Shown one piece after another: positions 5,617 to 48,660 of a stretch of 64,000 nucleotides of DNA. The DNA is from Streptomyces sp. NBC_00557 (GTDB lineage: Bacteria; Actinomycetota; Actinomycetes; Streptomycetales; Streptomycetaceae). Every line of letters begins with the position of its first letter. Positions within the stretch are counted from its first letter, which is position 1. The DNA is taken from NCBI RefSeq assembly GCF_036345995.1, contig NZ_CP107796.1, forward strand, positions 8,494,001 through 8,558,000. Direction: 5' to 3'. The notes beneath the pieces were generated by a model. That model did no database searches and had not been told where the DNA came from. It saw only the letters and a list, made by a program, of their open reading frames with translations. Made by a program: the position numbers and the translations under genes.

Positions 5617-6267
5617 CTATCCCGGCGTCTGGATGGTGTGGTTGATCGCAGAGGCGACGTCCTTAGCGATGTGGGTGGGCTGATAGGAGTCCTGGGTCCA
5701 GGCACGTCCGTCCGTCACCCACACGCTTCGAAGACCGAGCGCGTGGGCGCCCGCGATGTCGGCGTGGGGCGAATCGCCGATGACCCACGAGCCCGGGAGG
5801 GGGACACTGACGGCCTCGGCTGCCGCTTGGAAGATCTCCGGTTCTGGCTTCTTGTGACCGACTGCTTCGGAGACGACCCAGCCGTGGACGAGTTGGTCGA
5901 GTCCGGTCTTGCGGATCTTCGCTTCCTGCTGGGTGGTGCGCCCGTTCGTGACGATGGCGCAGGTCCAGCCGTGCGCCGTCGCTCGTCCTAGCGCCTCGCG
6001 GGCCGAGTGAGCCAGGACCACGCGGTCAGAGGCGCCGTTGTCGAGCAGGGCGCGGATGACGGCGGTGGGCACAACGCCGCCGTATCGGTCGGTGAGGGCT
6101 GCGGCGAGTTCGCAACGCGCGGTGTAGCCGCTTGCGTCGAGCGCCATCACCCATGTGAGGTCGGATTTGGGCAGGTCGTGCTCGGCAAGAAAGTCGGCGA
6201 CGGCGGCGCGGAAGGCCGCATCCCGGTCGACAAGGGTGTTGTCGAGGTCCAGCAGCAACAACGGCAT
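5617..6267 (-). CDS. HAD-superfamily phosphatase, subfamily IA
   Basis: A 216-aa cytoplasmic hydrolase for a small phosphorylated metabolite. Motif I is LLLLDLDNTLVD at the N-terminus (nucleophile Asp and acid/base Asp, DxD). An alpha-helical cap follows. Motif II is AIVTNGRT (Thr), motif III is the Lys in VGHKKPEPEIF, and motif IV is WVIGDSPHADIAGA (paired Asp). All catalytic residues are present and the length is normal for subfamily IA. The ATG at 6265-6267 starts directly at the family N-terminus; the longer upstream frame is unrelated. The gene stands alone, so the substrate cannot be inferred. Confidence 0.88.
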   Translation of the reverse strand: MPLLLLDLDNTLVDRDAAFRAAVADFLAEHDLPKSDLTWVMALDASGYTARCELAAALTDRYGGVVPTAVIRALLDNGASDRVVLAHSAREALGRATAHGWTCAIVTNGRTTQQEAKIRKTGLDQLVHGWVVSEAVGHKKPEPEIFQAAAEAVSVPLPGSWVIGDSPHADIAGAHALGLRSVWVTDGRAWTQDSYQPTHIAKDVASAINHTIQTPG

Positions 6268-22431: not shown

Positions 22432-22801
22432 CCCTGGGAAGCCCGATGCCGTACGAGTACTTCCTGCCGCTCCTGCGACGCGATCTCACCGGAAAGACGC
22501 GACCGCCGAGCCTACGCCGACGACGACTTGGTCCAGCATCGACGTGCCGTGCACGGCGGCCTGGCCCCGGCCGCCGGGGGACGGCGTCCGGCCGGTGCAT
22601 GCGGAGGCTCGGGGTGACGGCTGCCTGCCGTCGGGGTCGCTTCTGTTCTTCATGTTCCTGCTCGCTGCGGTCCTGGCCAACTGCTGGAGTCACTGACCAG
22701 ACGTGGCCACACCGTTGCGTCACAAGATCGTCCCTTGGGATACACGCACGCCCGCGGCCGGGCATGATGCCCCATCAGGATCAACCAGATCATGGGGGGC
22801 C
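22432..22801. other. Gene-free stretch
   Basis: A plus-strand piece MPYEYFLPLLRRDLTGKT at 22447 ends in Arg-rich, poorly composed sequence; it may be a decayed gene start. Nothing else is seen. Confidence 0.3.
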
Positions 22802-23398
22802 ATGAGCGCGCCCGCACGCCGCAGATCAGCAACACCTGCCGTGCCTGGTTGCGCGGTCCTCTCGTTGGCCGGGGCCGTGCTGCTGCTGATCACCAATGTG
22901 CCGGTCGGCGCCATCCTGCTGCTTGTCGCTGCTGGCGTATCCCTGGGGGTTGGGCGGCACAAGGCGCAGCAGGCCGCCGAGCGGTACCGGATCCGCTCCT
23001 TGCTATCCGCGGAGATCGCTCGCTACCACGCCATGGTCCCGGCGGAGTTCGAGCGTGCGGTGGCGTTCCTGTGCGAGCGCGACGGATGCACTGGCGTCCG
23101 CGTCGTCGGCGGTGCCGGGGGTCTTGGCGCGGACGTCATCGCCACCGCCCCGGACTGCCGGCGGATCATGATCCAGTGCAAGCGGTACGGGCCGACGAAG
23201 AAGGTTGGCTCGCCGGATCTTCAGCGGTTCGGGGGGACCTGCTACACGGTGCACGGCGCCCACGTCGCCGTGGTCGTGACGACCAGCGTCTTCACGAAGC
23301 CAGCGGCTGACTACGGTGTCCGCCAGGGGATCCGGCTCGTCGACAACGGGGCGCTGGCCGGGTGGGCGACACGGACCGGCCCGGCGACCTGGATGTGA
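22802..23398 (+). CDS. Membrane-anchored Mrr-type restriction endonuclease
   Basis: A 198-aa nuclease. Residues ~15-55 form two hydrophobic segments (VLSLAGAVLLLITNVPVGAI and LLLVAAGVSLGVG). A basic linker leads to a PD-(D/E)XK domain: EFERAVAFLCERDGCTGVRV, GLGADVIATAPDCR with the metal-binding Asp, and IMIQCKRYGPTKKVG with the QxK pair. This is the Mrr_cat fold that cuts modified or foreign DNA. The TAVVVTTSVFTKPAADY-like region is the family's usual C-terminal helix. The ATG at 22802 follows GGGGGG. The next gene starts 4 nt after the stop, so the two are one operon. Confidence 0.85.
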   Translation: MSAPARRRSATPAVPGCAVLSLAGAVLLLITNVPVGAILLLVAAGVSLGVGRHKAQQAAERYRIRSLLSAEIARYHAMVPAEFERAVAFLCERDGCTGVRVVGGAGGLGADVIATAPDCRRIMIQCKRYGPTKKVGSPDLQRFGGTCYTVHGAHVAVVVTTSVFTKPAADYGVRQGIRLVDNGALAGWATRTGPATWM

Positions 23399-23402
23399 TG
23401 AC

Positions 23403-24119
23403 GTGACAGAGCAGCTACTTCACATCGGCGGCCGCAGTCTCACGGTCACGGCCGCGGCCGACTGGGTCACTCGCTACTTCGACGAGAACGCCAACCGGCA
23501 CGCGGCAGCCACCCGCGCCGGCGGCGTGTACGCGTGGCCGGCCTACGACCGCCTCGACACCGGGAGCGGGCCGAACGAAGCCAACGACGGCGATTTCCTT
23601 GCCCCAGGCATGCTCAACGCAGGACCGTCGATCGCTGGCATGTCCTCCCTTCACACGGTCCGCGGCACGCTGGAACGAGCCCTCGCAGCGGTGCCGGTCG
23701 ATCTCAGCCTGGAGGCGGCGGTGGAGCAGGACCGGCACCGTCAGCTGCTCGGCGACCTCGTCCGAGTCCTCGACCCGTACCGATCACTGCCCGGCGTGCA
23801 GCTCACGATCCTGTCGAAGATCTTGCACCGTAAGCGCCCGCTGCTGGTCCCGCTGTTCGATGACAACGTCCGTAGCTGCTACGGGAGGTGGAGACCGACG
23901 CCGGGCTACCCGATGCGATGGGTTCGGAACCGGCCGGATGCGGAGTTCTTCCCTCTCCTCGCGGAGCACCTCGTGCATGATCTGGCAACCCAGGCGGAGG
24001 TGTGGGCGCGACTGGCGGCGCTCGTGCCGGCGGAAGTGACGCCACTGCGCCTGCTCGACGCGATCGCCTGGGGGATCGGAGGAAGGCACCCGAATCTTCC
24101 CTCCGCGAGCACGGCGTAG
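23403..24119 (+). CDS. DUF6308-family protein, HhH-glycosylase-like
   Basis: A 238-aa soluble protein. The block GVQLTILSKILHRKRPLLVP then LFDDNVRSCYG (about residues 138-168) matches what I know of DUF6308 proteins. It resembles the helix-hairpin-helix and following Asp of HhH DNA glycosylases (xSKxLhxKRPxLxPxxD). The N-terminal 90 residues include AWPAYDRLDTG. The GTG start is 4 nt after the Mrr-type nuclease stop, so the two are co-translated. A DNA-lesion or modified-base recognition role beside the nuclease is an inference; no lyase Lys or glycosylase activity has been shown for the family as far as I know. Confidence 0.65.
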   Translation: MTEQLLHIGGRSLTVTAAADWVTRYFDENANRHAAATRAGGVYAWPAYDRLDTGSGPNEANDGDFLAPGMLNAGPSIAGMSSLHTVRGTLERALAAVPVDLSLEAAVEQDRHRQLLGDLVRVLDPYRSLPGVQLTILSKILHRKRPLLVPLFDDNVRSCYGRWRPTPGYPMRWVRNRPDAEFFPLLAEHLVHDLATQAEVWARLAALVPAEVTPLRLLDAIAWGIGGRHPNLPSASTA

Positions 24120-36834: not shown

Positions 36835-37041
36835 TCATTGATCACGACCCGATACGCCCTGGAAGCAGCGCAGCCGTACACCAAGCTCACCGGGCTCCCG
36901 GGTCGTTCGGGCCGCCGGTGCGACCGCGCACCGCGTGGCGAGCAGCTCCTGGACCGCGAGCGCGGTTTCGTCATCGGCGGCCGCGACCTCCACCACGGCC
37001 AAGCCCGGCTCTGCCACGTGCGCGTCAGTGATCGGCCTCAT
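36835..37041 (-). CDS. DUF6207-family small protein
   Basis: A 68-aa protein reading MRPITDAHVAEPGLAVVEVA then AADDETALAVQELLATRCAV and TTREPGELGVRLRCF. This is the typical DUF6207 pattern (HVxEPGLxVVEVxAADDxTAxAxQxLLAxRWA...PGxxGVRLRCxxDL). The family is common in streptomycetes and its function is unknown. The ATG at 37039-37041 begins at the family N-terminus though no strong ribosome site is seen. Confidence 0.7.
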   Translation of the reverse strand: MRPITDAHVAEPGLAVVEVAAADDETALAVQELLATRCAVAPAARTTREPGELGVRLRCFQGVSGRDQ

Positions 37042-37156
37042 GCCTGGCACTACGCGCCGGCGCCAGCAGAAGTTCTCCGGTCCCGGCGTCTTCACCCGAC
37101 CGAGTGCGGAAGGGAACTGCGGCTCGCCGTGGACGCTGTCCAGGACCTGGCTGTGC

Positions 37157-38101
37157 GTGATCGGCGACCAGTTCCAGGCCGTGAGCGTTGCGCTGGATGT
37201 TGCGCGAAGTACGAACCTCCCCACGGCCTGCACAATGCTCGCCAACGCCTGCGACGCCTACGCCGACCACGTCGACACCGCCAAACAACGCCTTCCCATG
37301 GAGAACAGCGGACTCGACGGTGACTTCCTGTGGCCCTGGCAACAGCCACGCTTCGGAGGCGACGGCCACGACGGCGGCCTGCACGACCTCATAGCCGGCG
37401 ACAAGCGCATCACCTCACTCGGCAACATCCCTCACGCACTGGACAGCTCCCAGTCCCGAGTCAAGATGCCGCAGCCGGACAACGGCGGCCTCTTTCCCAA
37501 CCTCCCGCCGCTCCTCGGTCCCTTGATCCGCGTCCCGACGCTGGTACCGGCCGCCTATCGTCCCCTGCCTTCCAACACTCCGCACATTCAGCCGATCCCT
37601 CCGGCGATTCCTCCAGACCCGCGGTTCCCACCGCTCACGCCCAGCGCGGGGCAGAACTTCCAGACATGGCTCGACTCACTACGCAAGGGCGACATCTCCG
37701 GCGGCAGGCCGGCCGAGCAGGCCTACCAGAGGCGCGTGGCGGGTTTCCCCGAGTTCGAGGTACCGATCCCAGCAGGGATCAGTCCATCCAACACCCTGAT
37801 GGTCGACGGATTCCGCAACGTCGACGGGATGGCGGTCGAGGCAAAATACGTGAACAAGCCGAACCAACGCTGCTACCGCTCGCTGGAAGACCTCCGCAAG
37901 AACCACGCGACCGGCGACAGAGCCTTCCTCTACAAAGATGACCGCCTGGAACTCCGCAAGTACGCCGCCGCGCTCAACGACCCACGCAACAAGGAGATGC
38001 GCGGAGTCGAGACGGTCACCAACAACCAAGACGCCGTCCAGTACTGGCGCATCATGATGGCGGCCTACGGCGTCAAAGGCCACGCTCGCTACGTTCCCTG
38101 A
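37157..38101 (+). CDS. Polymorphic toxin with restriction-endonuclease-fold C-terminus
   Basis: About 314 aa from the GTG at 37157; the frame is open further upstream but overlaps DUF6207, so the N-terminus may be truncated. Part 1 (residues ~15-45) has a WXG-like helix TNLPTACTMLANACDAYADH. A Pro-rich linker follows (PNLPPLLGPLIRVPTLVPAA). The C-terminus holds ISPSNTLMVDGFRNVDGMAV then EAKYVNKPNQRCYRSLEDLR: Asp followed by ExK, the metal site of restriction-fold toxins (Tox-REase group). The following gene starts 28 bp later and is the likely immunity gene. It probably cuts DNA of a competitor. Confidence 0.65.
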   Translation: MIGDQFQAVSVALDVARSTNLPTACTMLANACDAYADHVDTAKQRLPMENSGLDGDFLWPWQQPRFGGDGHDGGLHDLIAGDKRITSLGNIPHALDSSQSRVKMPQPDNGGLFPNLPPLLGPLIRVPTLVPAAYRPLPSNTPHIQPIPPAIPPDPRFPPLTPSAGQNFQTWLDSLRKGDISGGRPAEQAYQRRVAGFPEFEVPIPAGISPSNTLMVDGFRNVDGMAVEAKYVNKPNQRCYRSLEDLRKNHATGDRAFLYKDDRLELRKYAAALNDPRNKEMRGVETVTNNQDAVQYWRIMMAAYGVKGHARYVP

Positions 38102-38128
38102 CCAGCCCATCCCCAGGAAAGTACCGCT

Positions 38129-38575
38129 ATGGAACCCGAAGAGATCGCGGAACTGCGCACCATGTACGTCTTCACCCCACCGCGCGGGCAGAGCTGGGGC
38201 CTGACCTTCGAAGGACTCGAGGCGCGGCTGCGTGAGCGGAACCCGGACACGTTCATCCGCATCGATGACGAAGGAGACGGCCCGGTCCGCGGATCATCAA
38301 TGATCTTCGGAATCACTTTCGACGACGAGACCCTGGAAGGCTTCGCCAGCCTGGAACCCGAGGGCGTGTCCGTCCGGGAGTGCAACGCCCACACGGCAGC
38401 CCGGGTCGCCCTGTGGCTGCGGAACAACGTGGCACCCGATGAGGTCCCCGTCATGTTCAACACGGACTGGGGAATCGAGGAAGGCATGGAACCCACCCTC
38501 GTCCCCGACGCCACCCGCCCACGCATCGTGGCAGCACTCGTCCAGCACATCGAAGAGACCGGCGGCCTCGACTGA
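38129..38575 (+). CDS. Candidate immunity protein for the restriction-fold toxin
   Basis: A 148-aa acidic soluble protein: MEPEEIAELRTMYVFTPPRG at the start, FIRIDDEGDGPVRGSSMIFG in the middle, and NAHTAARVALWLRNNVAPDE near the end. No known domain is seen. Its place 28 bp behind the toxin, small size and acidity are typical for immunity proteins that cover a basic nuclease site. A plausible ribosome site (AGGAAAG) precedes the ATG. Confidence 0.65.
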   Translation: MEPEEIAELRTMYVFTPPRGQSWGLTFEGLEARLRERNPDTFIRIDDEGDGPVRGSSMIFGITFDDETLEGFASLEPEGVSVRECNAHTAARVALWLRNNVAPDEVPVMFNTDWGIEEGMEPTLVPDATRPRIVAALVQHIEETGGLD

Positions 38576-39129: not shown

Positions 39130-39960
39130 TCAGCCGGATGTCTCCCAGCTGGTGGTGAACAACCCGCATTCGAGCAGGTCGGGGGCTGTACCGGACGGCC
39201 AGCTGTCGCCTGCGGCCAGCTGGCCGGCGGCGGCGTGCATGAAGGAGAGGTAGACCTGGTAGCGGTGGGGCGACCAGTTCCCGTCCGACCAGACCCAGGC
39301 GGCCACCGAACCGTCCACATCGTGGCCGCTCTCGCGACCGACTGCGGCGGCCATCCACCTCAGGCATCTGGACAGCACCCGATCGAGGATGAGCGGCCGC
39401 ACGCCGTGGACGGGCGGCAGCGTGCTACCGGTGAAGTAGAGGAACTTGGTGAAGAAGGCTGGCCCAAGCCCGGGAACCTGCCCCTGGAGCGCGGTGTACG
39501 CCTGTGGTGCACCGTGCTCGCGCAGTGCGGTGACGGCGGTGGCCAGCGCCGAGTCCAGGCCGTCGAAAGCCAGGATCTTATGCAGGGTGGCCGGGCCGCT
39601 GCCGCCGGGAGTGCCGCGCTTTCCCTTGCCCCACACATACGTCGCGACCAGTGCCTCCCTGAACGCCTCCCGCCGCAGCGCGTCGGCGACGGCCGAGGCC
39701 ACCTCCGCGCGGCTGACCGCAGCGTCACCGCCTACGGAGGTGGGCGCCAGCGTCTTCGGCCACGGAATGATCTGCGCCCACCGGTTGGGCGTGTAGCGGA
39801 TCGTGTGCGCGCCGGGTGTCCCGTCCGCGTAAACCGACGCATTCACCTCCCACCAGTGGCCCAGCGCTCGCACAACGGCGTCGGGCAGCAGGCGTGCGGC
39901 CATCTCGCGGTCCACCGCGTCCGCACGCTCCTGGCGACCCTGCTCGTCCTGTTCGGTCAC
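39130..39960 (-). CDS. OGG-fold DNA glycosylase-like protein
   Basis: A 276-aa protein of the actinobacterial family usually annotated as 8-oxoguanine DNA glycosylase OGG-fold. The key part is LQGQVPGLGPAFFTKFLYFT (helix-hairpin-helix-like) followed by PPVHGVRPLILDRVLSRCLR with an Asp in the usual catalytic place. The N-terminal region has ATYVWGKGKRGTPGGSGPAT, also typical. The GTG at 39958-39960 overlaps the TGA of the PIN gene (GTGA), so the two proteins are made together. Glycosylase activity is not proven for this family. Confidence 0.7.
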   Translation of the reverse strand: MTEQDEQGRQERADAVDREMAARLLPDAVVRALGHWWEVNASVYADGTPGAHTIRYTPNRWAQIIPWPKTLAPTSVGGDAAVSRAEVASAVADALRREAFREALVATYVWGKGKRGTPGGSGPATLHKILAFDGLDSALATAVTALREHGAPQAYTALQGQVPGLGPAFFTKFLYFTGSTLPPVHGVRPLILDRVLSRCLRWMAAAVGRESGHDVDGSVAAWVWSDGNWSPHRYQVYLSFMHAAAGQLAAGDSWPSGTAPDLLECGLFTTSWETSG

Positions 39961-40925
39961 GAGCCGTTCCCTGCCTGACGTGCCGACGGCCGTGAGGAGG
40001 ATGCAGCGGATTCCTTCAGTTCGGGCTGCTGCGATACACCCCCTCCCGGCACGAGCTCGGCGGCTGCCTGTTCCAGTTCCTGCCAGCGAAGTTCGCCACC
40101 CTCGATCAGGTACGTGTCGGGCAGGGGCCGTGCATGCAGCCCCCAGGTGCGGGCGCGGGTCCGTACGCCGATGTCGCGGCTGACGACGACCACCTCCGAG
40201 GGAGCGACGGCCTGGTACAGACGCAGTGCCGAGGCCACCAACTCGTCGTCCGGCACGGGAAGGCGGGCGTGCCCAGGCTCATCAGCCGCGATGAACACGG
40301 GGGTCCCGTCATCCGCGATCGCCTTCTCGGGCCCTGCTTCCAGCACCGACTCCAGCAACCGGAACACGCCGCGTGCCCGCCGGGAGATCTTCTTGTCCCC
40401 CGTCTGGTAGCTCTTGGTGTCGATCTCGTCGACCACGACGTGCGGCACCATGACCGTGGTGCCCTTCCCGAACACCTTCTGCCAGGGGACTTTGTCGAAC
40501 CGCGTGAAGTGCAGCGTCGTGTTCGTGTCCAGCACCGCGTACCGCACGGCACCGGCACGTCCGTACCGCTCCTGCATGGCACGCACCCGGTTGGCCACGG
40601 ATCTGAAGTAGTCCTGGAGCTCGGCGATTTCCACGTGCATCATCAGCCGGGCCTCGTCCAACGGCGCGGTGAGGATCGCCCGGTAGCGGCCCGCACGGAG
40701 ATGTCCCGCGATCTCCCGGTCGCTGAACCGCCGGTTGAGCTCCTCGGCGGCCTTCCAGGTCCACTCGTCGTACCGTTTGCGCACGGCCCGCATCTCGGCC
40801 GCGGCTTCCGCGCCCGTTTTCATCGTGTGAGGGATCCGGATGGAGACGTCGTTGAGGCTCCCGGCCACGAGATCGTTGTCCAGGAAATTAATTGCGTCGG
40901 TGCAGGTCGTTCCAGCTCTCAGCAT
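39957..40925 (-). CDS. PIN-domain ribonuclease
   Basis: A 322-aa protein. An N-terminal helical region (~130 residues, RKRYDEWTWKAAEELNRRFS) precedes a PIN domain. The PIN domain reads AVRYAVLDTNTTLHFTRFDK (first Asp), VMVPHVVVDEIDTKSYQTGD (Glu/Asp), PVPDDELVASALRLYQAVAP and EVVVVSRDIGVRTRARTWGL (last Asp). All acidic residues for metal binding are there, so it should cut RNA or single-stranded nucleic acid. Unlike VapC it has no antitoxin beside it; instead the OGG-fold gene overlaps its stop by 4 nt. The ATG at 40923-40925 is used. Confidence 0.8.
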   Translation of the reverse strand: MLRAGTTCTDAINFLDNDLVAGSLNDVSIRIPHTMKTGAEAAAEMRAVRKRYDEWTWKAAEELNRRFSDREIAGHLRAGRYRAILTAPLDEARLMMHVEIAELQDYFRSVANRVRAMQERYGRAGAVRYAVLDTNTTLHFTRFDKVPWQKVFGKGTTVMVPHVVVDEIDTKSYQTGDKKISRRARGVFRLLESVLEAGPEKAIADDGTPVFIAADEPGHARLPVPDDELVASALRLYQAVAPSEVVVVSRDIGVRTRARTWGLHARPLPDTYLIEGGELRWQELEQAAAELVPGGGVSQQPELKESAASSSRPSARQAGNGS

Positions 40926-41035
40926 GCCTTTGTTCTCTCCCCCCGGGACGGGGCTCGGTGCGCCCCGTCCGACCCATCCTGCCAGCGTTGCTTACGTCCT
41001 ATGCGAGTTCCGCAGCTCGGTGTCGGGCTGGGCGG

Positions 41036-41863: not shown

Positions 41864-42159
41864 GACGTGACACGGTAGACCGTCTCGGCCGGTACCCGAC
41901 ACGCCACCACAGAAGGGCGAGCCGGAGACGAGACTGCAGAACGCCGGTTATGGGCCTGCAGGGTGCTCGTGGCTGTCCCCGACTGGCTCCGCCGCCGGGG
42001 GGAGCGGAGCGGTGCGGCTGTGGCTCACCTTCGGGCACCCGGTGGCCGTCCTCGGCTTCCTGGTGCCGTCCCACGGCGTGGCCCTGGCGGGCCTGCTCGG
42101 CGGGCTGGGCAGGAGGGGATCCTGGCGGCGGTGTCACACCGGGCCGCTACGGTTCGGCC

Positions 42160-43611
42160 ATGGCCGCGCACACCTCGGGTCCCAACGGACTCGTCCCCGT
42201 ACACATCGCTGTCCACGACCCCGCCCAGATGGAAGAGCCCGATCCGCAGGCCGCCGACTACGCGCGCAAGCTCTTCGCGGCCTCGGCCAGGTACGCGGGA
42301 GTCTCCTGGATCGAGCATGGGACCGAACCGCGCTGGCTCGACATGGACACCAGCACCTGCGCCGCCGCCATCAACCCGAGCCACTTCTCCGGTCACGGCG
42401 CCGACGAGTTCGACAGGTTCCTGTCCGGGGCGGCCTCGCGCGGCGAGCCCGCGCTCATCGTCGCAACGATGGGCACCGCGGACGATGACAAAGACCGCGT
42501 GCGGTCGGTCTTCGGCCGGCCCGGCGGCCGCGTGGACTTCCGCCACTTCACCGGCGCGATCATAGGCAAGCGGCTGCTCGCGGGGGCGGAGGTCTTCCTG
42601 GCTCCCGATCTGGACGCGGCCGACCGCGACCTCGGACTGAGACTCCGCAACCGCCCCGCCAGCGCCCCCTGGTGGGCGATGACCCTGCAGGCGAGCGCCC
42701 TGGAAGGCCCGCGCGGAATGACGGTTCGCGAGCCCGAAGGCGAGCTGGTGCCGATCCTCGTCGACAGCCTGGGCGAGCCCGTCGTCGCACGCTGGACGTC
42801 CGGCGACGGCCAGCAGATCTGGTACGTGATCCCGGACGGGGTCGACTGGAACCAGGTGGTCGACTGGCTCGTCCAGCGCGCCCTTCCCGAGTACGTACCG
42901 GCCGCACTGCGCCGCGTCCGCTCACGCCACCATGTCGACCCCGCCCTGGAGACCCCTGCGGAGACGCAAGCACGCGGCGCCCTTGAAGAGTTGGAGCGCC
43001 GCTACCTGAAGGACAGGGCCGGCCTGGAAGACGATCTGGAGCGGGCACGACAGGAGGCCGACCCCGTGCGCAACGGCCTACTGTACGGCAGCGGCAGCGA
43101 GCTGGAAGACGCGGTCGCCGTGGTACTGCGTGCCGCCGGATTCGCCGTCACCGATCTGGACGAGGAATTGGGCGGCACCCTGTCGGCGGACCTGCTCGCC
43201 GTGCTGAATGGGTCCACCTGCCTGGTCGAGGTGAAGGCCGCCACGGGGGCAGCAGGCGAGAAACTGATCTCGCAGCTTCAACGCCATCTGGAAAAATGGC
43301 CGCAACTGCGGCCCGGTCAGCCAGTCACCTGCGCTGCCTTGATTGTCAACCACCAGCATCGCCTCGACCCCGCCGAGCGCTCTGCCGAGGTGTATCAGCA
43401 CAGGGTCGTCGATACGCTCCCCTTTCCCGTGATCGCCTCCGGCGACCTGTTCCGCTGGTGGCGCACGCAGGACTGGTCGGCCGTGCAGGGCGCTGTGCTC
43501 GGCCAGGCCCGCCCAGGAGGGAAACAGGACGAGCCCCCTGCCGGAGGGCGCGAGACCCCTGCGGCCCGCCGCAGGCGGTGGCGTCCCTGGAGCAATGGCG
43601 GAACCGCGTAG
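42160..43611 (+). CDS. PD-(D/E)XK nuclease-like protein with N-terminal unknown domain
   Basis: A 483-aa soluble protein. The first ~300 residues contain HIAVHDPAQMEEPDPQAADY and LVPILVDSLGEPVVARWTSG without a known domain. A coiled helix RGALEELERRYLKDRAGLED follows. The C-terminal ~130 residues look like a restriction-endonuclease fold: YGSGSELEDAVAVVLRAAGF (Glu), GTLSADLLAVLNGSTCLVEV (Asp, then ExK with KAATGAAG) and LISQLQRHLEKWPQLRPGQP. The ATG at 42160 has no strong ribosome site. It may belong to a defence locus with the PIN/OGG pair on the other strand. Confidence 0.6.
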   Translation: MAAHTSGPNGLVPVHIAVHDPAQMEEPDPQAADYARKLFAASARYAGVSWIEHGTEPRWLDMDTSTCAAAINPSHFSGHGADEFDRFLSGAASRGEPALIVATMGTADDDKDRVRSVFGRPGGRVDFRHFTGAIIGKRLLAGAEVFLAPDLDAADRDLGLRLRNRPASAPWWAMTLQASALEGPRGMTVREPEGELVPILVDSLGEPVVARWTSGDGQQIWYVIPDGVDWNQVVDWLVQRALPEYVPAALRRVRSRHHVDPALETPAETQARGALEELERRYLKDRAGLEDDLERARQEADPVRNGLLYGSGSELEDAVAVVLRAAGFAVTDLDEELGGTLSADLLAVLNGSTCLVEVKAATGAAGEKLISQLQRHLEKWPQLRPGQPVTCAALIVNHQHRLDPAERSAEVYQHRVVDTLPFPVIASGDLFRWWRTQDWSAVQGAVLGQARPGGKQDEPPAGGRETPAARRRRWRPWSNGGTA

Positions 43612-44324: not shown

Positions 44325-45056
44325 TCAGGCCCCGAGGGAGGCGCGTACGGCGTCGATCTCCTCGATCAGTTCCTCGAAGCACTCGAAGCCACGGTCGACG
44401 TCGACGCAGCTCATGTCGACTCCGCACGTGGCCTGCCGTTCCCTCAGCAGCGGCTGGTCCGGCATGGAGATCGGGAAGGCCAGCGGGTCGAGGGACCGCT
44501 CCAGGAGCACGTCGAGGTCGCGGCGTCCGGGGCCGGGTTCGCCTACGGCGAGGCAGCCGTCGAGGTCGTTGAGGTAGACCACGCCGGCGGCCAGTCCCTT
44601 GGTCCACTCGGTGAACAGCGCCGCCAGGCTGGGGGCCGCGCGCACCGCGTCCCAGGCGTCGGGGGCGATCTCGTAGCGCCAGATCTCGCCCTCGTGGTCG
44701 CCCGCCAGCACGAACGTGTAGATGAGGTACTCGAAGTGGAACAGCGGCAGCTGATGACGCCAGGGGAACGGGACGCCGATCGACAGCGACAAGTTGTCGA
44801 GTGCCTCGTTCGCGTCGGTCGGCCAGGCGAGCAGCCAGCCGCCGTTGGGCAACAGGCGTTGCTCCGTCCACCCCTGGCCGTGGAGCCAGGTCACCTGCTC
44901 GGCGACCCGGTCCACGTCGAACAGCCGGTAGACAAGCTCCGGCGGGGGCGGAGCCCCGGGCGGGGCGGCCGGCTCGGGCCAGCTGAGGCCTGCGGCCGTC
45001 GCCGCCGCCCGGTACTCCTGTGCCGCGTCGCGCAGCACGGTCATGTCATCGAGCAT
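44325..45056 (-). CDS. Candidate immunity protein for the NucA/NucB exotoxin
   Basis: A 243-aa acidic soluble protein. Blocks are LLPNGGWLLAWPTDANEALD, LPLFHFEYLIYTFVLAGDHE, GEIWRYEIAPDAWDAVRAAP and GLAAGVVYLNDLDGCLAVGE. I do not recognise the family. Its ATG overlaps the last base of the exotoxin stop (TGATG), which demands co-translation, and it has no signal peptide while the toxin is exported. This is the classic layout of an immunity gene. The alternative is an unrelated co-transcribed cytosolic gene. Confidence 0.7.
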   Translation of the reverse strand: MLDDMTVLRDAAQEYRAAATAAGLSWPEPAAPPGAPPPPELVYRLFDVDRVAEQVTWLHGQGWTEQRLLPNGGWLLAWPTDANEALDNLSLSIGVPFPWRHQLPLFHFEYLIYTFVLAGDHEGEIWRYEIAPDAWDAVRAAPSLAALFTEWTKGLAAGVVYLNDLDGCLAVGEPGPGRRDLDVLLERSLDPLAFPISMPDQPLLRERQATCGVDMSCVDVDRGFECFEELIEEIDAVRASLGA

Positions 45057-47452
45057 CAGGGCGTCGTTCCCGCGGGCAGCGTGGGCTCCATGCACAGGCT
45101 GGCCCCGCTGGAGTTGACGCGGAACCCGAAGCTCGGGGCGTTCGCCGCGACCCACGGCTTGACCGGCAGCACGATATACCTCTCGTTGTCGTTCACCCTG
45201 CATTTCCCTGGGAACGCGCTGTTGTCACGCATCTGCGGATGTGTCTCCGCGCCTGGCACCAGTCGTAGGTCGGCGGTCAGACCCGAAAGGTCGACTGCTT
45301 GGTCCGTCGCCCAGAACGGGAACTCGTCGCAGGTCTTCCCGGCACCGACCGCGGGCCGCGGCAAGCATGGATTATTGCGCGCGAACCGCTCGTCGTTGTA
45401 GTACCAGCTGCGCTCATATCCCTTGGCTCTCGCGGCCTGGCCCCTGATGCTGCGCGCCGGGCCGAACCATTTGTTCCGCTCTGCAGGCTGCGGCCACCTT
45501 CCGTTGCCCATGGCCTCCACGATATGTTTCCCGGTCTCCTGCATGGGCTCGAACCGGTAGTTCCGGCCGCCGGGTACATAGACGGCGAAGTTCTCATCAC
45601 ACGGGGCGATGCTGGTCGACGCCTGCTTCTGGGCGGCGCAGGCCTGGTCGATGTTGGCTCTGAGGTCCGCGTCATCGCTCGACGTCCAGGCGAAGGGCAG
45701 GTTGTACTTGCTGGCCAGCTCCTTCGTGGTCTTGAGTACTTGGGCGTAGGCCGTCAGGCTGTGGTACCACTGGCCGTTCTCCAGGCCCCACTTATCGAAG
45801 GTGTTCAAGTCGTCGGTGTAATGGATCGGGTACTCGAGGATTCCGCCGATGGCTATCGGACTGGGTGTGAGGATCGCCCAGAGCGCCCCCAACGTGGTCC
45901 CGATGGCGATCGCCGCGGCGATGACGACGACCCAGAAGACGGCGGTGGCGAGGACGCTTGCGGCTGCCGCGGCCTCACCGACCACCACGGGCGGCGCCAG
46001 CAGCAGCGCGCAGGTGGGTGTGTTCTCTTCACACCACACGACCGGCTCGACCAGGGTGCCCGGATCGAGCAGTGGTTGCACCCCGCCGGTGGCGCCGCTC
46101 AGTGAGGAGAGCACCGGTCCGCCGCCGGGCGACGCAAGGTCGTGGAGGAGGCGGGTGACGTCGTCCGAGCAGTCGAGTTTCTGGTTCTTCTCCGGCGGCA
46201 TGTACTTGTGGATGCAGCTGGCGTTCGCGACGGCGTAGCAGCCGGGGAAGACCTCGGTGCTCCCCCCGGGCACCTTGACAACAGAGCGCATACTCTCCGC
46301 GACGTAGAAGTCGCCGCCCTGCGCGGCGCATTGCGAGGCCTCGCTGGTCACCTGCTGGGTGACCTCTTCGGGTATCGCGGGGGCGACGTCCTTGGTGGTG
46401 AAGTCTCCGGAGAAGTCCCGCCGCTTGCTGCCGTCCTCGCGCATTGCGTCGATCCGCAGTGAGTACGGGGTGGACGACTCGAGCGGCTCGATCGTGTACT
46501 TGATGACGCTGTCTGCCGTGCACGGATCCGCGCAGTAGTCCTTCAACGAGAACTCGTCGTAGAGCTGACCGTCGAGGAAGACGCGGTAGGTGGAGTCCTC
46601 CTTGGGGTCGGGCTGCCACTTGGCGTCGGCGCCGCCGGCTTCCACGTCGAACTTCAGCTCGGCCTTGGGGTCGGGCTCTGGCGGCAGCTCCTTCGTGTGG
46701 AAGGTGGTCTTGGCCGGTACCGCCGACTTGTTGCCGGCCAGATCGACGGCGACCACGGACACGGTGTGGTCCGCGTTCGGCGAGAGGCCGGTCATGGTGT
46801 ACGAGCGGGTGCCGACATTGGTCCGGATCGGGGCGCCGCCGTCGATCCGGACCTCGTACCCCGCGAGACCGTAGTTGTCGGTGGCCGCACTCCAGGAGGC
46901 CCGGGCGGTGGCGGACGTGATGTCGCCGACGGACAGCCCGTTGACGTCGCTCGGGGCGATCCGGTCGACGACGGTGAAGGATCGCAGGAGACGCGCGGAC
47001 CGCTTGGGGTCGCGCTTCGCGCGCACACAGGCCAGGTTCTCGCCCAGCTGCGGCGGCCGCAGCCGGGTCGCCCACGACGACGCCCATGCCGCGACACCGT
47101 CCGGCGGCGGGCCGAGGGTGAAGTCGGTCGTCACCACTTTACCGAGGGAGACGTCCTCCATCTCCGCGTGCTTGTGCAACACGCCTTTGAGGTCGATCTT
47201 CCCCTGCTCGTCGACCGCGACCTCCGAGTGGGGCGACGTCATGTCGAGCCGGATGGAGGCGTGGTTCTCGTCGTCGGCCGACTTCCCGTCCTCCCCGGGC
47301 GCCGCCATGCCCTCGCACGCGGCCGGCGCGAGCCGCTTCTGCTCGGCGGCCTCCGCTTTCGAGGGCGGCAGGTTCACCAACCCCACGGGAAGGGTGAGCG
47401 ACACGAGTATCGCCGTCGCCCGTAAGCCCTTAAGGAATTTCCTCTTCCGCAT
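45056..47452 (-). CDS. Secreted FN3-containing exotoxin with NucA/NucB nuclease C-terminus
   Basis: A 798-aa exported protein. Signal peptide: MRKRKFLKGLRATAILVSLT and on to SKAEA. An N-terminal beta domain follows, then fibronectin-III domains (first about residues 160-250, TARASWSAATDNYGLAGYEV then NADHTVSVVAVDLAGNKSAV; a second one after it). Then come a Cys-rich part and a long hydrophobic stretch about residues 490-545 (SVLATAVFWVVVIAAAIAIG then TTLGALWAIL), possibly for membrane passage. The C-terminal ~150 residues end with GKTCDEFPFWATDQAVDLSG and LVPGAETHPQMRDNSAFPGK, the NucA/NucB DNase motifs. The ATG at 47452 follows GGGGGGGG. The immunity candidate overlaps its stop. Confidence 0.75.
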   Translation of the reverse strand: MRKRKFLKGLRATAILVSLTLPVGLVNLPPSKAEAAEQKRLAPAACEGMAAPGEDGKSADDENHASIRLDMTSPHSEVAVDEQGKIDLKGVLHKHAEMEDVSLGKVVTTDFTLGPPPDGVAAWASSWATRLRPPQLGENLACVRAKRDPKRSARLLRSFTVVDRIAPSDVNGLSVGDITSATARASWSAATDNYGLAGYEVRIDGGAPIRTNVGTRSYTMTGLSPNADHTVSVVAVDLAGNKSAVPAKTTFHTKELPPEPDPKAELKFDVEAGGADAKWQPDPKEDSTYRVFLDGQLYDEFSLKDYCADPCTADSVIKYTIEPLESSTPYSLRIDAMREDGSKRRDFSGDFTTKDVAPAIPEEVTQQVTSEASQCAAQGGDFYVAESMRSVVKVPGGSTEVFPGCYAVANASCIHKYMPPEKNQKLDCSDDVTRLLHDLASPGGGPVLSSLSGATGGVQPLLDPGTLVEPVVWCEENTPTCALLLAPPVVVGEAAAAASVLATAVFWVVVIAAAIAIGTTLGALWAILTPSPIAIGGILEYPIHYTDDLNTFDKWGLENGQWYHSLTAYAQVLKTTKELASKYNLPFAWTSSDDADLRANIDQACAAQKQASTSIAPCDENFAVYVPGGRNYRFEPMQETGKHIVEAMGNGRWPQPAERNKWFGPARSIRGQAARAKGYERSWYYNDERFARNNPCLPRPAVGAGKTCDEFPFWATDQAVDLSGLTADLRLVPGAETHPQMRDNSAFPGKCRVNDNERYIVLPVKPWVAANAPSFGFRVNSSGASLCMEPTLPAGTTP

Positions 47453-48660
47453 GATCCCCCCCAGCCACGCAAGCGCCATCAAGCGCTATCAAGTGGCCCC
47501 CGATTGTAGGAGGAGCGTCAATAGTTGTCAGTAACTCGACAATCGCCAGCTGGTACTTGGTGGCATCCGGCTCCGGGCCGCTATACCAGCTCAGACCCTT
47601 TAGTTGGTAGATCCGGACATGCTGTAGATCGATGCCGTCCACAGCGACGGTGAGGCGTCTGTGACGAAGGGGTCTCTCCAGAGCCCCGGCAGTCTGTCTC
47701 ACACCGGCCTGGATGAGGGCCAGGTGACCTGCTGGAACTCCTGGATGCGCTGGTCGCTGTTCTCCCTGATCGCCGCCGTCCTCGCCCTCACCGTCGCCGC
47801 CACGGCCACGTACGACCCTGTCGTACCCGCCCGTCTCATCCCGCTGACCTGTCCCGAACTCGTCCGGCCTCCTGCGGGCGTTCGTCCTGACACCACCCGT
47901 CAGGGAAGCCGAGCACGTCCTGCACTGGACGGCCTGGCGCCGACATCAGGCGGGCGAGCCAGTCGGGGACGCCGGTCGTGCGGGTGCACAGGCCGGAGTC
48001 GACGATGTTCCGGGCGCGGGGCGGTGCGGCTGTCGGGAGCATGGCCGCGGACCGTACGAATGGGCGTGGCTACCGTCGCGCGCTGCGCCAGGGCGGGAAA
48101 TCGCGGGGGATCTCTTCTCGTACCGATGGCGTACCCCGGTGCGGCCGGGGACCAGGTTCCTCTAGCAAGACCTTTCAGGAGCGGGCGGGGAAAGATGCCA
48201 GGGATCGGCTGCAGAAAGTGGTAGGTCCTGGTGCCCCCGGGGTGAGCGCGTTGCGGCTGGTCGTCTCGTCGGCGTTCCCGGCTGCAGCATTTCCCGCAGG
48301 ATTCCTATGCGGAAACGGCCGCAGATCCTGTGATGCGCCTGCTGCGCGGCCGGACGCCGCCGCGACTAGACACCCCCTCTGAGCAGTGGTTCTTCGGGTG
48401 CCGACGGGCCTCCGCAGACCTGACATGGTGCTTGCCCTGGGCGCAACTCGGCGCCCTCGAGCAAGGGGGAGCCGGGGTAGCGGGGACCGCGTCACGGTCG
48501 AGCTGTACCGGATTCCGCGAGGCGGCAAGGCCCGGCAGCCCCGCCGCGTCCAGCTTGCCGCCCAGATCGGGCCCGGCGACAACGCCGAGCCGGTCATGAC
48601 GATCACGCAGCCGGGCGAGGACTGACGCCCTCGGCGGGCGCGGCCGGCCCCCGGGCTGTT
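47453..48660. other. Gene-poor region, about 1.2 kb
   Basis: No confident gene. A plus-strand frame at about 47719-47880 has a hydrophobic helix (WMRWSLFSLIAAVLALTVAA) followed by poor sequence. A minus-strand piece near 47850-48000 reads DSGLCTRTTGVPDWLARLMS. A plus-strand piece ends ELYRIPRGGKARQPRRVQLA...QPGED at 48623-48625. They look like fragments of lost genes. Confidence 0.35.

What the first reader, a model, noticed from the sequence alone, without database searches (positions are those of the whole stretch)
39130..40925. PIN nuclease translationally fused by overlap to an OGG-fold glycosylase-like protein
Seen: the PIN gene stop overlaps the GTG start of the OGG-fold gene by 4 nt (GTGA). 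All PIN acidic residues are present, and no VapB-like antitoxin is next to it. Inference: the pair works as one unit. Together with the Mrr/DUF6308 pair at 22.8 kb, it is the second nuclease plus HhH-glycosylase-like pair in this window, which suggests a recurring design rather than chance.
Basis: partly seen in the sequence, partly recalled or inferred. Interest (0 to 1): 0.72.

Follow-up and report, generated by a model that had tools for sequence, protein, structure and literature searches.

The report
Paired nuclease and base-excision-fold gene cassette
In some soil bacteria (Streptomyces) a PIN-type nuclease gene and a gene for a protein folded like a DNA-base-removing repair enzyme travel together as one small two-gene unit, which is probably a defence against foreign DNA, although no function has been tested.

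The parts
39957..40925 (-). PIN nuclease gene, 322 aa: N-terminal region (about 1-125) plus PIN_4 domain (131-265), acidic residues D133, E167, D226/D227, D251
39130..39960 (-). OGG-fold (HhH-GPD-like) gene, 276 aa, PF21790; invariant G166, T171, K172, D193, E264
39957..39960 (-). 4-nt GTGA overlap: PIN stop and OGG GTG start, conserved in 7 of 7 intact copies
40926..41013 (-). conserved leader upstream of the PIN start; DNA shared by the copies usually begins here (56-134 nt before the ATG)
40946..40970 (.). inverted repeat GGACGGGGC-N7-GCCCCGTCC in the leader; its GGGG and CCCC arms are present in 10 of 10 copies; folding energy was no better than shuffled sequence in 3 of 4 copies folded and only mildly so (z -1.5) in the fourth

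Best explanation
The pair is a mobile two-gene operon, most likely a DNA-conflict (anti-phage or anti-plasmid) cassette. Shown: the two genes are kept in overlap and conserved as one block in several Streptomyces, both are under purifying selection, and the OGG product models as an HhH-GPD glycosylase fold of the Ogg2 type with an invariant aspartate (D193). Inferred: OGG reads DNA, recognising or excising a non-host base in incoming DNA. It probably acts without the usual Schiff-base lyase step, because the canonical lysine appears to be missing. PIN is the nuclease effector that acts with it or after it, either on the damaged DNA or on RNA to stop the infection. The conserved leader would drive both genes, and the GTGA overlap would keep their amounts matched.
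Confidence: 0.5

Rival explanations
1. Toxin-antitoxin pair: PIN is a VapC-like RNase toxin and the OGG-fold protein is its (unusual) antitoxin.
For: Overlapping two-gene operon with a PIN nuclease; OGG without PIN is common while all 5 full-length close PIN genes in 392 genomes have OGG downstream; on plasmid NZ_CP108855 PIN is reduced to its last 65 residues beside an open OGG.
Against: OGG is large, has an enzyme-type fold and stands without this PIN in most genomes that have it, and no antitoxin domain was matched. In L042 and L019 PIN is open while OGG is broken. Caveats: L042 also lacks the upstream GGAACTCGCA box and L019 is a single frame change in a draft genome.
Confidence: 0.2
2. 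Oxidative DNA repair: OGG is a true 8-oxoguanine glycosylase and PIN a processing nuclease, a mobile repair operon.
For: Best structural matches are Ogg2 glycosylases; the GPD aspartate is invariant in 49 of 49.
Against: No Lys at the usual 18-19 residues before the aspartate; patchy distribution, 54 of 392 genomes; no repair family stands among the 25 commonest of the sampled neighbours.
Confidence: 0.12
3. RNA-level system: OGG resembles queuosine-salvage glycosylases (DUF2419), and with the PIN RNase it acts on modified RNA or nucleotides rather than DNA.
Confidence: 0.08
4. Co-transcribed but functionally unrelated genes that happen to lie in one mobile block.
For: 4-nt overlaps are ordinary in these genomes (10 of 136); both families mostly live apart.
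Against: Shared block edges, a conserved junction and one clade.
Confidence: 0.1

Closest known systems
DefensePredictor DS-5 (PIN + DUF5830/AcrIF4-like partner), PMC13092281
   Same: Two-gene unit with a PIN nuclease and a dissimilar partner, likely not a toxin-antitoxin pair
   Different: Partner is not described as an HhH-glycosylase fold; defence was shown experimentally for DS-5, nothing is shown here
Brig3/BapA (and Brig1) DNA-glycosylase defence, PMC13160076
   Same: DNA glycosylase encoded in an overlapping two-gene operon
   Different: Partner BapA is a glucosyl hydrolase, not a nuclease; the terms HhH and helix-hairpin-helix do not occur in the paper; no sequence link was tested
Ogg2 8-oxoguanine glycosylases (3n0u, 3knt)
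   Different: No Lys at the usual spacing; 12-17% identity; patchy, in mobile blocks
VapBC toxin-antitoxin
   Same: PIN nuclease with intact acids in a two-gene operon
   Different: No VapB-type antitoxin gene called; PIN has a ~125-aa N-terminal region; partner has an enzyme-type fold
Mrr/DUF6308 neighbours at 22.7-24.1 kb of the window
   Same: Nuclease gene followed at 4 nt by an HhH-like-fold gene
   Different: Pairing not found in 30 DUF6308 loci; no significant sequence similarity to OGG

Membership tests
PIN_4 nuclease (PF13638) | Profile match above cut-off with conserved acidic residues | tested here: met
   49.2 bits against cut-off 21.9; D133, E167, D226, D227, D251 invariant 23 of 23
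PF21790 OGG-like | Profile match above cut-off | tested here: met
   172.1 bits against 27
HhH-GPD glycosylase superfamily | HhH-GPD fold | tested here: met
HhH-GPD glycosylase superfamily | Invariant GPD aspartate | tested here: met
   D193 in 49 of 49, after the G166 hairpin in an LILD context
Ogg1/Ogg2 8-oxoguanine glycosylase-lyase | Catalytic Lys 18-19 residues before the Asp (MjaOgg K129-D147, EndoIII K120-D138, hOGG1 K249-D268; PMC5069365, PMC11754123, PMC13160076) | tested here: inconclusive
   By spacing the place is not Lys; the invariant Lys lies 13 residues before Asp in members without the insert such as L058 (21 in the window protein with its insert). No coordinates superposed
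Ogg1/Ogg2 8-oxoguanine glycosylase-lyase | Excises 8-oxoG | not testable with these tools
   needs an assay
VapBC toxin-antitoxin | Small VapB-type antitoxin gene adjoining the PIN gene | tested here: not met
   No such gene called in the block or at its edges
Known anti-phage defence system (PADLOC-DB) | Match to a system model | tested here: not met
   0 models at E<=1 for both proteins
Recurring nuclease + HhH pair (with Mrr/DUF6308) | Conserved Mrr-DUF6308 neighbourhood | tested here: not met
   0 of 30 DUF6308 loci hold a homologue of the window's Mrr within up to about 1.5 kb
Recurring nuclease + HhH pair (with Mrr/DUF6308) | Shared fold of OGG and DUF6308 | tested here: inconclusive

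The most novel reading that the evidence does not exclude
PF21790 is a modular 'base-reading' component of several unrelated DNA-conflict systems (PIN here; N6-methylase plus helicase, GmrSD and NERD-helicase elsewhere). It is a lysine-displaced HhH-GPD branch, perhaps shared with DUF6308, in which recognition or excision of a foreign base licenses the partner nuclease. The PIN pairing would be a base-excision-triggered nuclease system of a kind not yet described.
Probability: 0.25. Interest if true: 0.8.

Novelty: new variant of a known kind. Interest (0 to 1): 0.55.

Why it matters
Glycosylase-based phage defence is recent and rests on few families (recalled, apart from the Brig paper cited). 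A mobile PIN plus HhH-glycosylase-fold operon, with relatives beside methylase, helicase and GmrSD genes, would extend it to actinobacteria and give a defined, testable two-gene system. It would also give two unstudied Pfam families (PF21790, DUF6308) a common structural hypothesis. No paper holding the terms PF21790, DUF6308 or 'OGG fold protein' was found in the held library; the term searches on PIN, glycosylase and defence listed no title on this pairing.

Tried and rejected
VapBC membership: rejected, no VapB-type gene called. Mrr/DUF6308 as the same design: rejected on neighbourhood. Sequence searches against PDB sequences with OGG, PIN and the OGG and DUF6308 profiles: nothing useful. 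Foldseek on both models: no significant hit; only the VIA-align second look showed Ogg2 clearly. hhalign OGG against DUF6308: probability 0.6%. Phage and viral collections: no match (the last two scan short patterns only). Leader hairpin as an RNA structure: not convincing. Promoter and terminator scan: nothing. Unsupervised clustering of OGG neighbours gave no dominant partner; that run excluded genes overlapping the OGG start, so PIN was missed there and was recovered. Pfam and PADLOC tallies of neighbours against random loci used a random 148 of 225 neighbour genes and 147 of 169 control genes; suggestive only. A first, wider random sample of neighbours (145 genes) was drawn but not scanned. 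In the tree, loci with under 170 profile positions, L042 among them, were left out (99 of 115 loci used). In some searches I gave a wrong-frame ORF (22792-23310) for the Mrr gene; its Pfam match comes from the right frame, and the PADLOC and NCBIfam results for Mrr are not used.

Full report
OBSERVATION. They are two proteins, not a fusion. The PIN protein has a ~125-residue N-terminal region before a PIN_4 domain; the acids D133, E167, D226/D227 and D251 are invariant in 23 of 23 relatives. No VapB-like gene was called beside it. One 4-nt overlap alone means little: 10 of 136 same-strand neighbours in 20 random loci of related genomes allow one.

IS IT A UNIT? Yes. In 392 Streptomyces genomes (drawn evenly from a larger set) PF21790 occurs in 54 (51 over the cut-off), and a full-length close PIN (86% identity or more) in 5. 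All 5 have OGG directly downstream. Two further genomes hold only pieces of a close PIN: G118 with an OGG piece, G317 with none. With the GTDB scan (best 80 of 90 loci), the plasmid search and the order search (which added no new record, judging by place and contig) I hold ten records of the pair: the window, L006, L009, L019, L042, L139, L140, L141, L142 and plasmid L195. DNA comparison within 4 kb shows one shared block that usually starts 56-134 nt before the PIN ATG and ends within about 30 nt of the OGG stop, with mostly unrelated flanks. Exceptions: longer leaders in L006-L195 (-228) and L009-L142 (-241); an end at +64 in L009-L195; the broken OGG of L042; separate upstream pieces shared by L140-L195 (1219 nt) and L019-window (939 nt); and a few scattered matches of 40-364 nt. 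Seven of ten are intact in both genes and all seven carry GTGA. Over 21 comparisons of the seven, median dN/dS is 0.30 for OGG and 0.29 for PIN. In a quick tree (LG+G4, no bootstrap, with long-branch warnings) of 110 OGG rows the 19 PIN-linked rows form one clade (one change, SH-aLRT 95). Eight of the 19 were seen directly; for the other 11 the partner was inferred from a shared contig length.

PARTNERS LIVE APART ELSEWHERE. OGG mostly lacks PIN. A second PIN clade (42-47% identity) has no OGG nearby: seven Streptomyces genomes in stretches of 7.5-15 kb, and three more genomes in about 1.5 kb each side. In one of the ten, L144, the contig ends 174 nt after PIN, so nine are informative. One of these PINs lies beside AIPR and protein-kinase genes.

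DECAY. L042 and L019 have an open PIN and a broken OGG; L009 has a shifted PIN tail and an open OGG; L196 keeps OGG with only the last 65 PIN residues; L150 has pieces of both; L151 has PIN pieces without OGG. Loss in both directions speaks against a strict toxin-antitoxin pair. The two PIN-only cases are weak: L042 also lacks the GGAACTCGCA box of the leader, and L019 is one frame change in a draft genome.

CONTEXT OF THE FAMILY. Of 137 loci examined, 126 held an OGG hit, 115 after removing duplicates. No partner dominates, but DNA-conflict genes recur: N6 methylase fused (L048) or overlapping by 4 nt (L049, L050), followed by a SNF2-type helicase; NERD-UvrD overlapping by 4 nt (L076); GmrSD 2, 7 and 14 nt away (L065, L159, L040; the last counts the GTG at 5920). 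Other adjacent genes are unrelated to DNA conflict, such as UDP-glucose dehydrogenase, EcsC, FemAB and a phosphopantetheinyl transferase. GmrSD lies in 7 of 115 loci and 0 of 20 control loci. From 35 PF03235 matches in 41 related genomes, 0.13 would be expected. GmrSD was chosen after it had been noticed, L040 and L169 are close relatives as are, less closely, L159 and L191, and the base rate is mostly from Streptomyces. Pfam and PADLOC tallies of 148 neighbours against 147 control genes point the same way (nuclease and transposase families among the commonest; 75 PADLOC models against 13) but count models, not genes.

THE SECOND PAIR. Mrr ends at 23398 and DUF6308 most likely starts at GTG 23403. 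DUF6308 occurs in 41 of 392 genomes. Around 30 of those places, with up to about 1.5 kb on each side, no homologue of the window's Mrr was found (tblastn E<=1e-3), including the two closest relatives L246 and L247. DUF6308 neighbours are varied: GDSL lipase, HEPN-RES, TerF-like (twice), P450 among five upstream genes scanned for it, plus a zinc-ribbon-like small protein. So the claim of a recurring nuclease plus HhH design is not upheld for this pair.

MECHANISM. Shown: a conserved, mobile, two-gene unit under purifying selection; a PIN nuclease with intact acids; a predicted HhH-GPD fold with the catalytic aspartate. Inferred: OGG reads or excises a foreign base and PIN is the nuclease arm; the target could be DNA or RNA. 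Precedents are Brig3/BapA (abstract and passages read) and DS-5 (section 7 read), in which a PIN protein and a dissimilar partner are both needed and the pair is likely not a toxin-antitoxin system.

VERDICT. The feature is real and a unit, wider than one strain, with an apparently undescribed combination. Function is unproven. New variant of a known kind.

Noticed in passing
window 22703-24119 (+): Mrr_cat gene ending at 23398 and DUF6308 gene starting at GTG 23403; DUF6308 models as an HhH-glycosylase-like fold; the pairing was not found in 30 other DUF6308 loci.
   Followed up: yes
window 36935-38575 (+): 388-aa protein with a C-terminal Tox-REase-2 domain followed by a 148-aa gene without family match, a candidate polymorphic toxin and immunity pair.
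   Followed up: no
window 41950-43611 (+): 553-aa protein with a sub-threshold Mrr_cat match at residues 381-449, a possible restriction-fold nuclease.
   Followed up: no
window 45056-47482 (-): 808-aa ORF with fn3 and a C-terminal NucA/NucB DNase domain.
   Followed up: no
L048:3961-6738, L049:3935-10044, L050:3872-9993: N6 DNA methylase fused to, or overlapping by 4 nt, a PF21790 OGG domain and followed by a SNF2-type helicase (Dactylosporangium, Micromonospora): a possible undescribed restriction-like system.
   Followed up: partly
L040, L065, L159, L169, L011, L025, L191: GmrSD-family genes near PF21790 genes in 7 of 115 loci, about 50 times the estimated chance rate (post hoc).
   Followed up: partly
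L051:3012-5912 (+): 966-aa protein combining MJ1316, endo/exonuclease-phosphatase, 2'-5' RNA ligase and PAP-central domains directly upstream of an OGG gene.
   Followed up: no
L145:3756-8610: Distant PIN relative (45%) convergent with AIPR and protein-kinase genes; a 476-aa gene stands beside PIN in L146 and L149 too.
   Followed up: no
L140:6997-8142, L195:5593-6735, L008:2144-3280: A ~380-aa family with a weak AbiJ_NTD3 match recurs near OGG genes, twice the next gene upstream of PIN-OGG.
   Followed up: no
window 40946-40970: Inverted repeat in the PIN leader whose GGGG and CCCC arms are kept in 10 of 10 copies; possible operator.
   Followed up: partly
L221 (G319:C1:8910-9485 and 10139211-10139786): DUF6308 present with the same score near both ends of one chromosome, probably in the terminal inverted repeats.
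   Followed up: no
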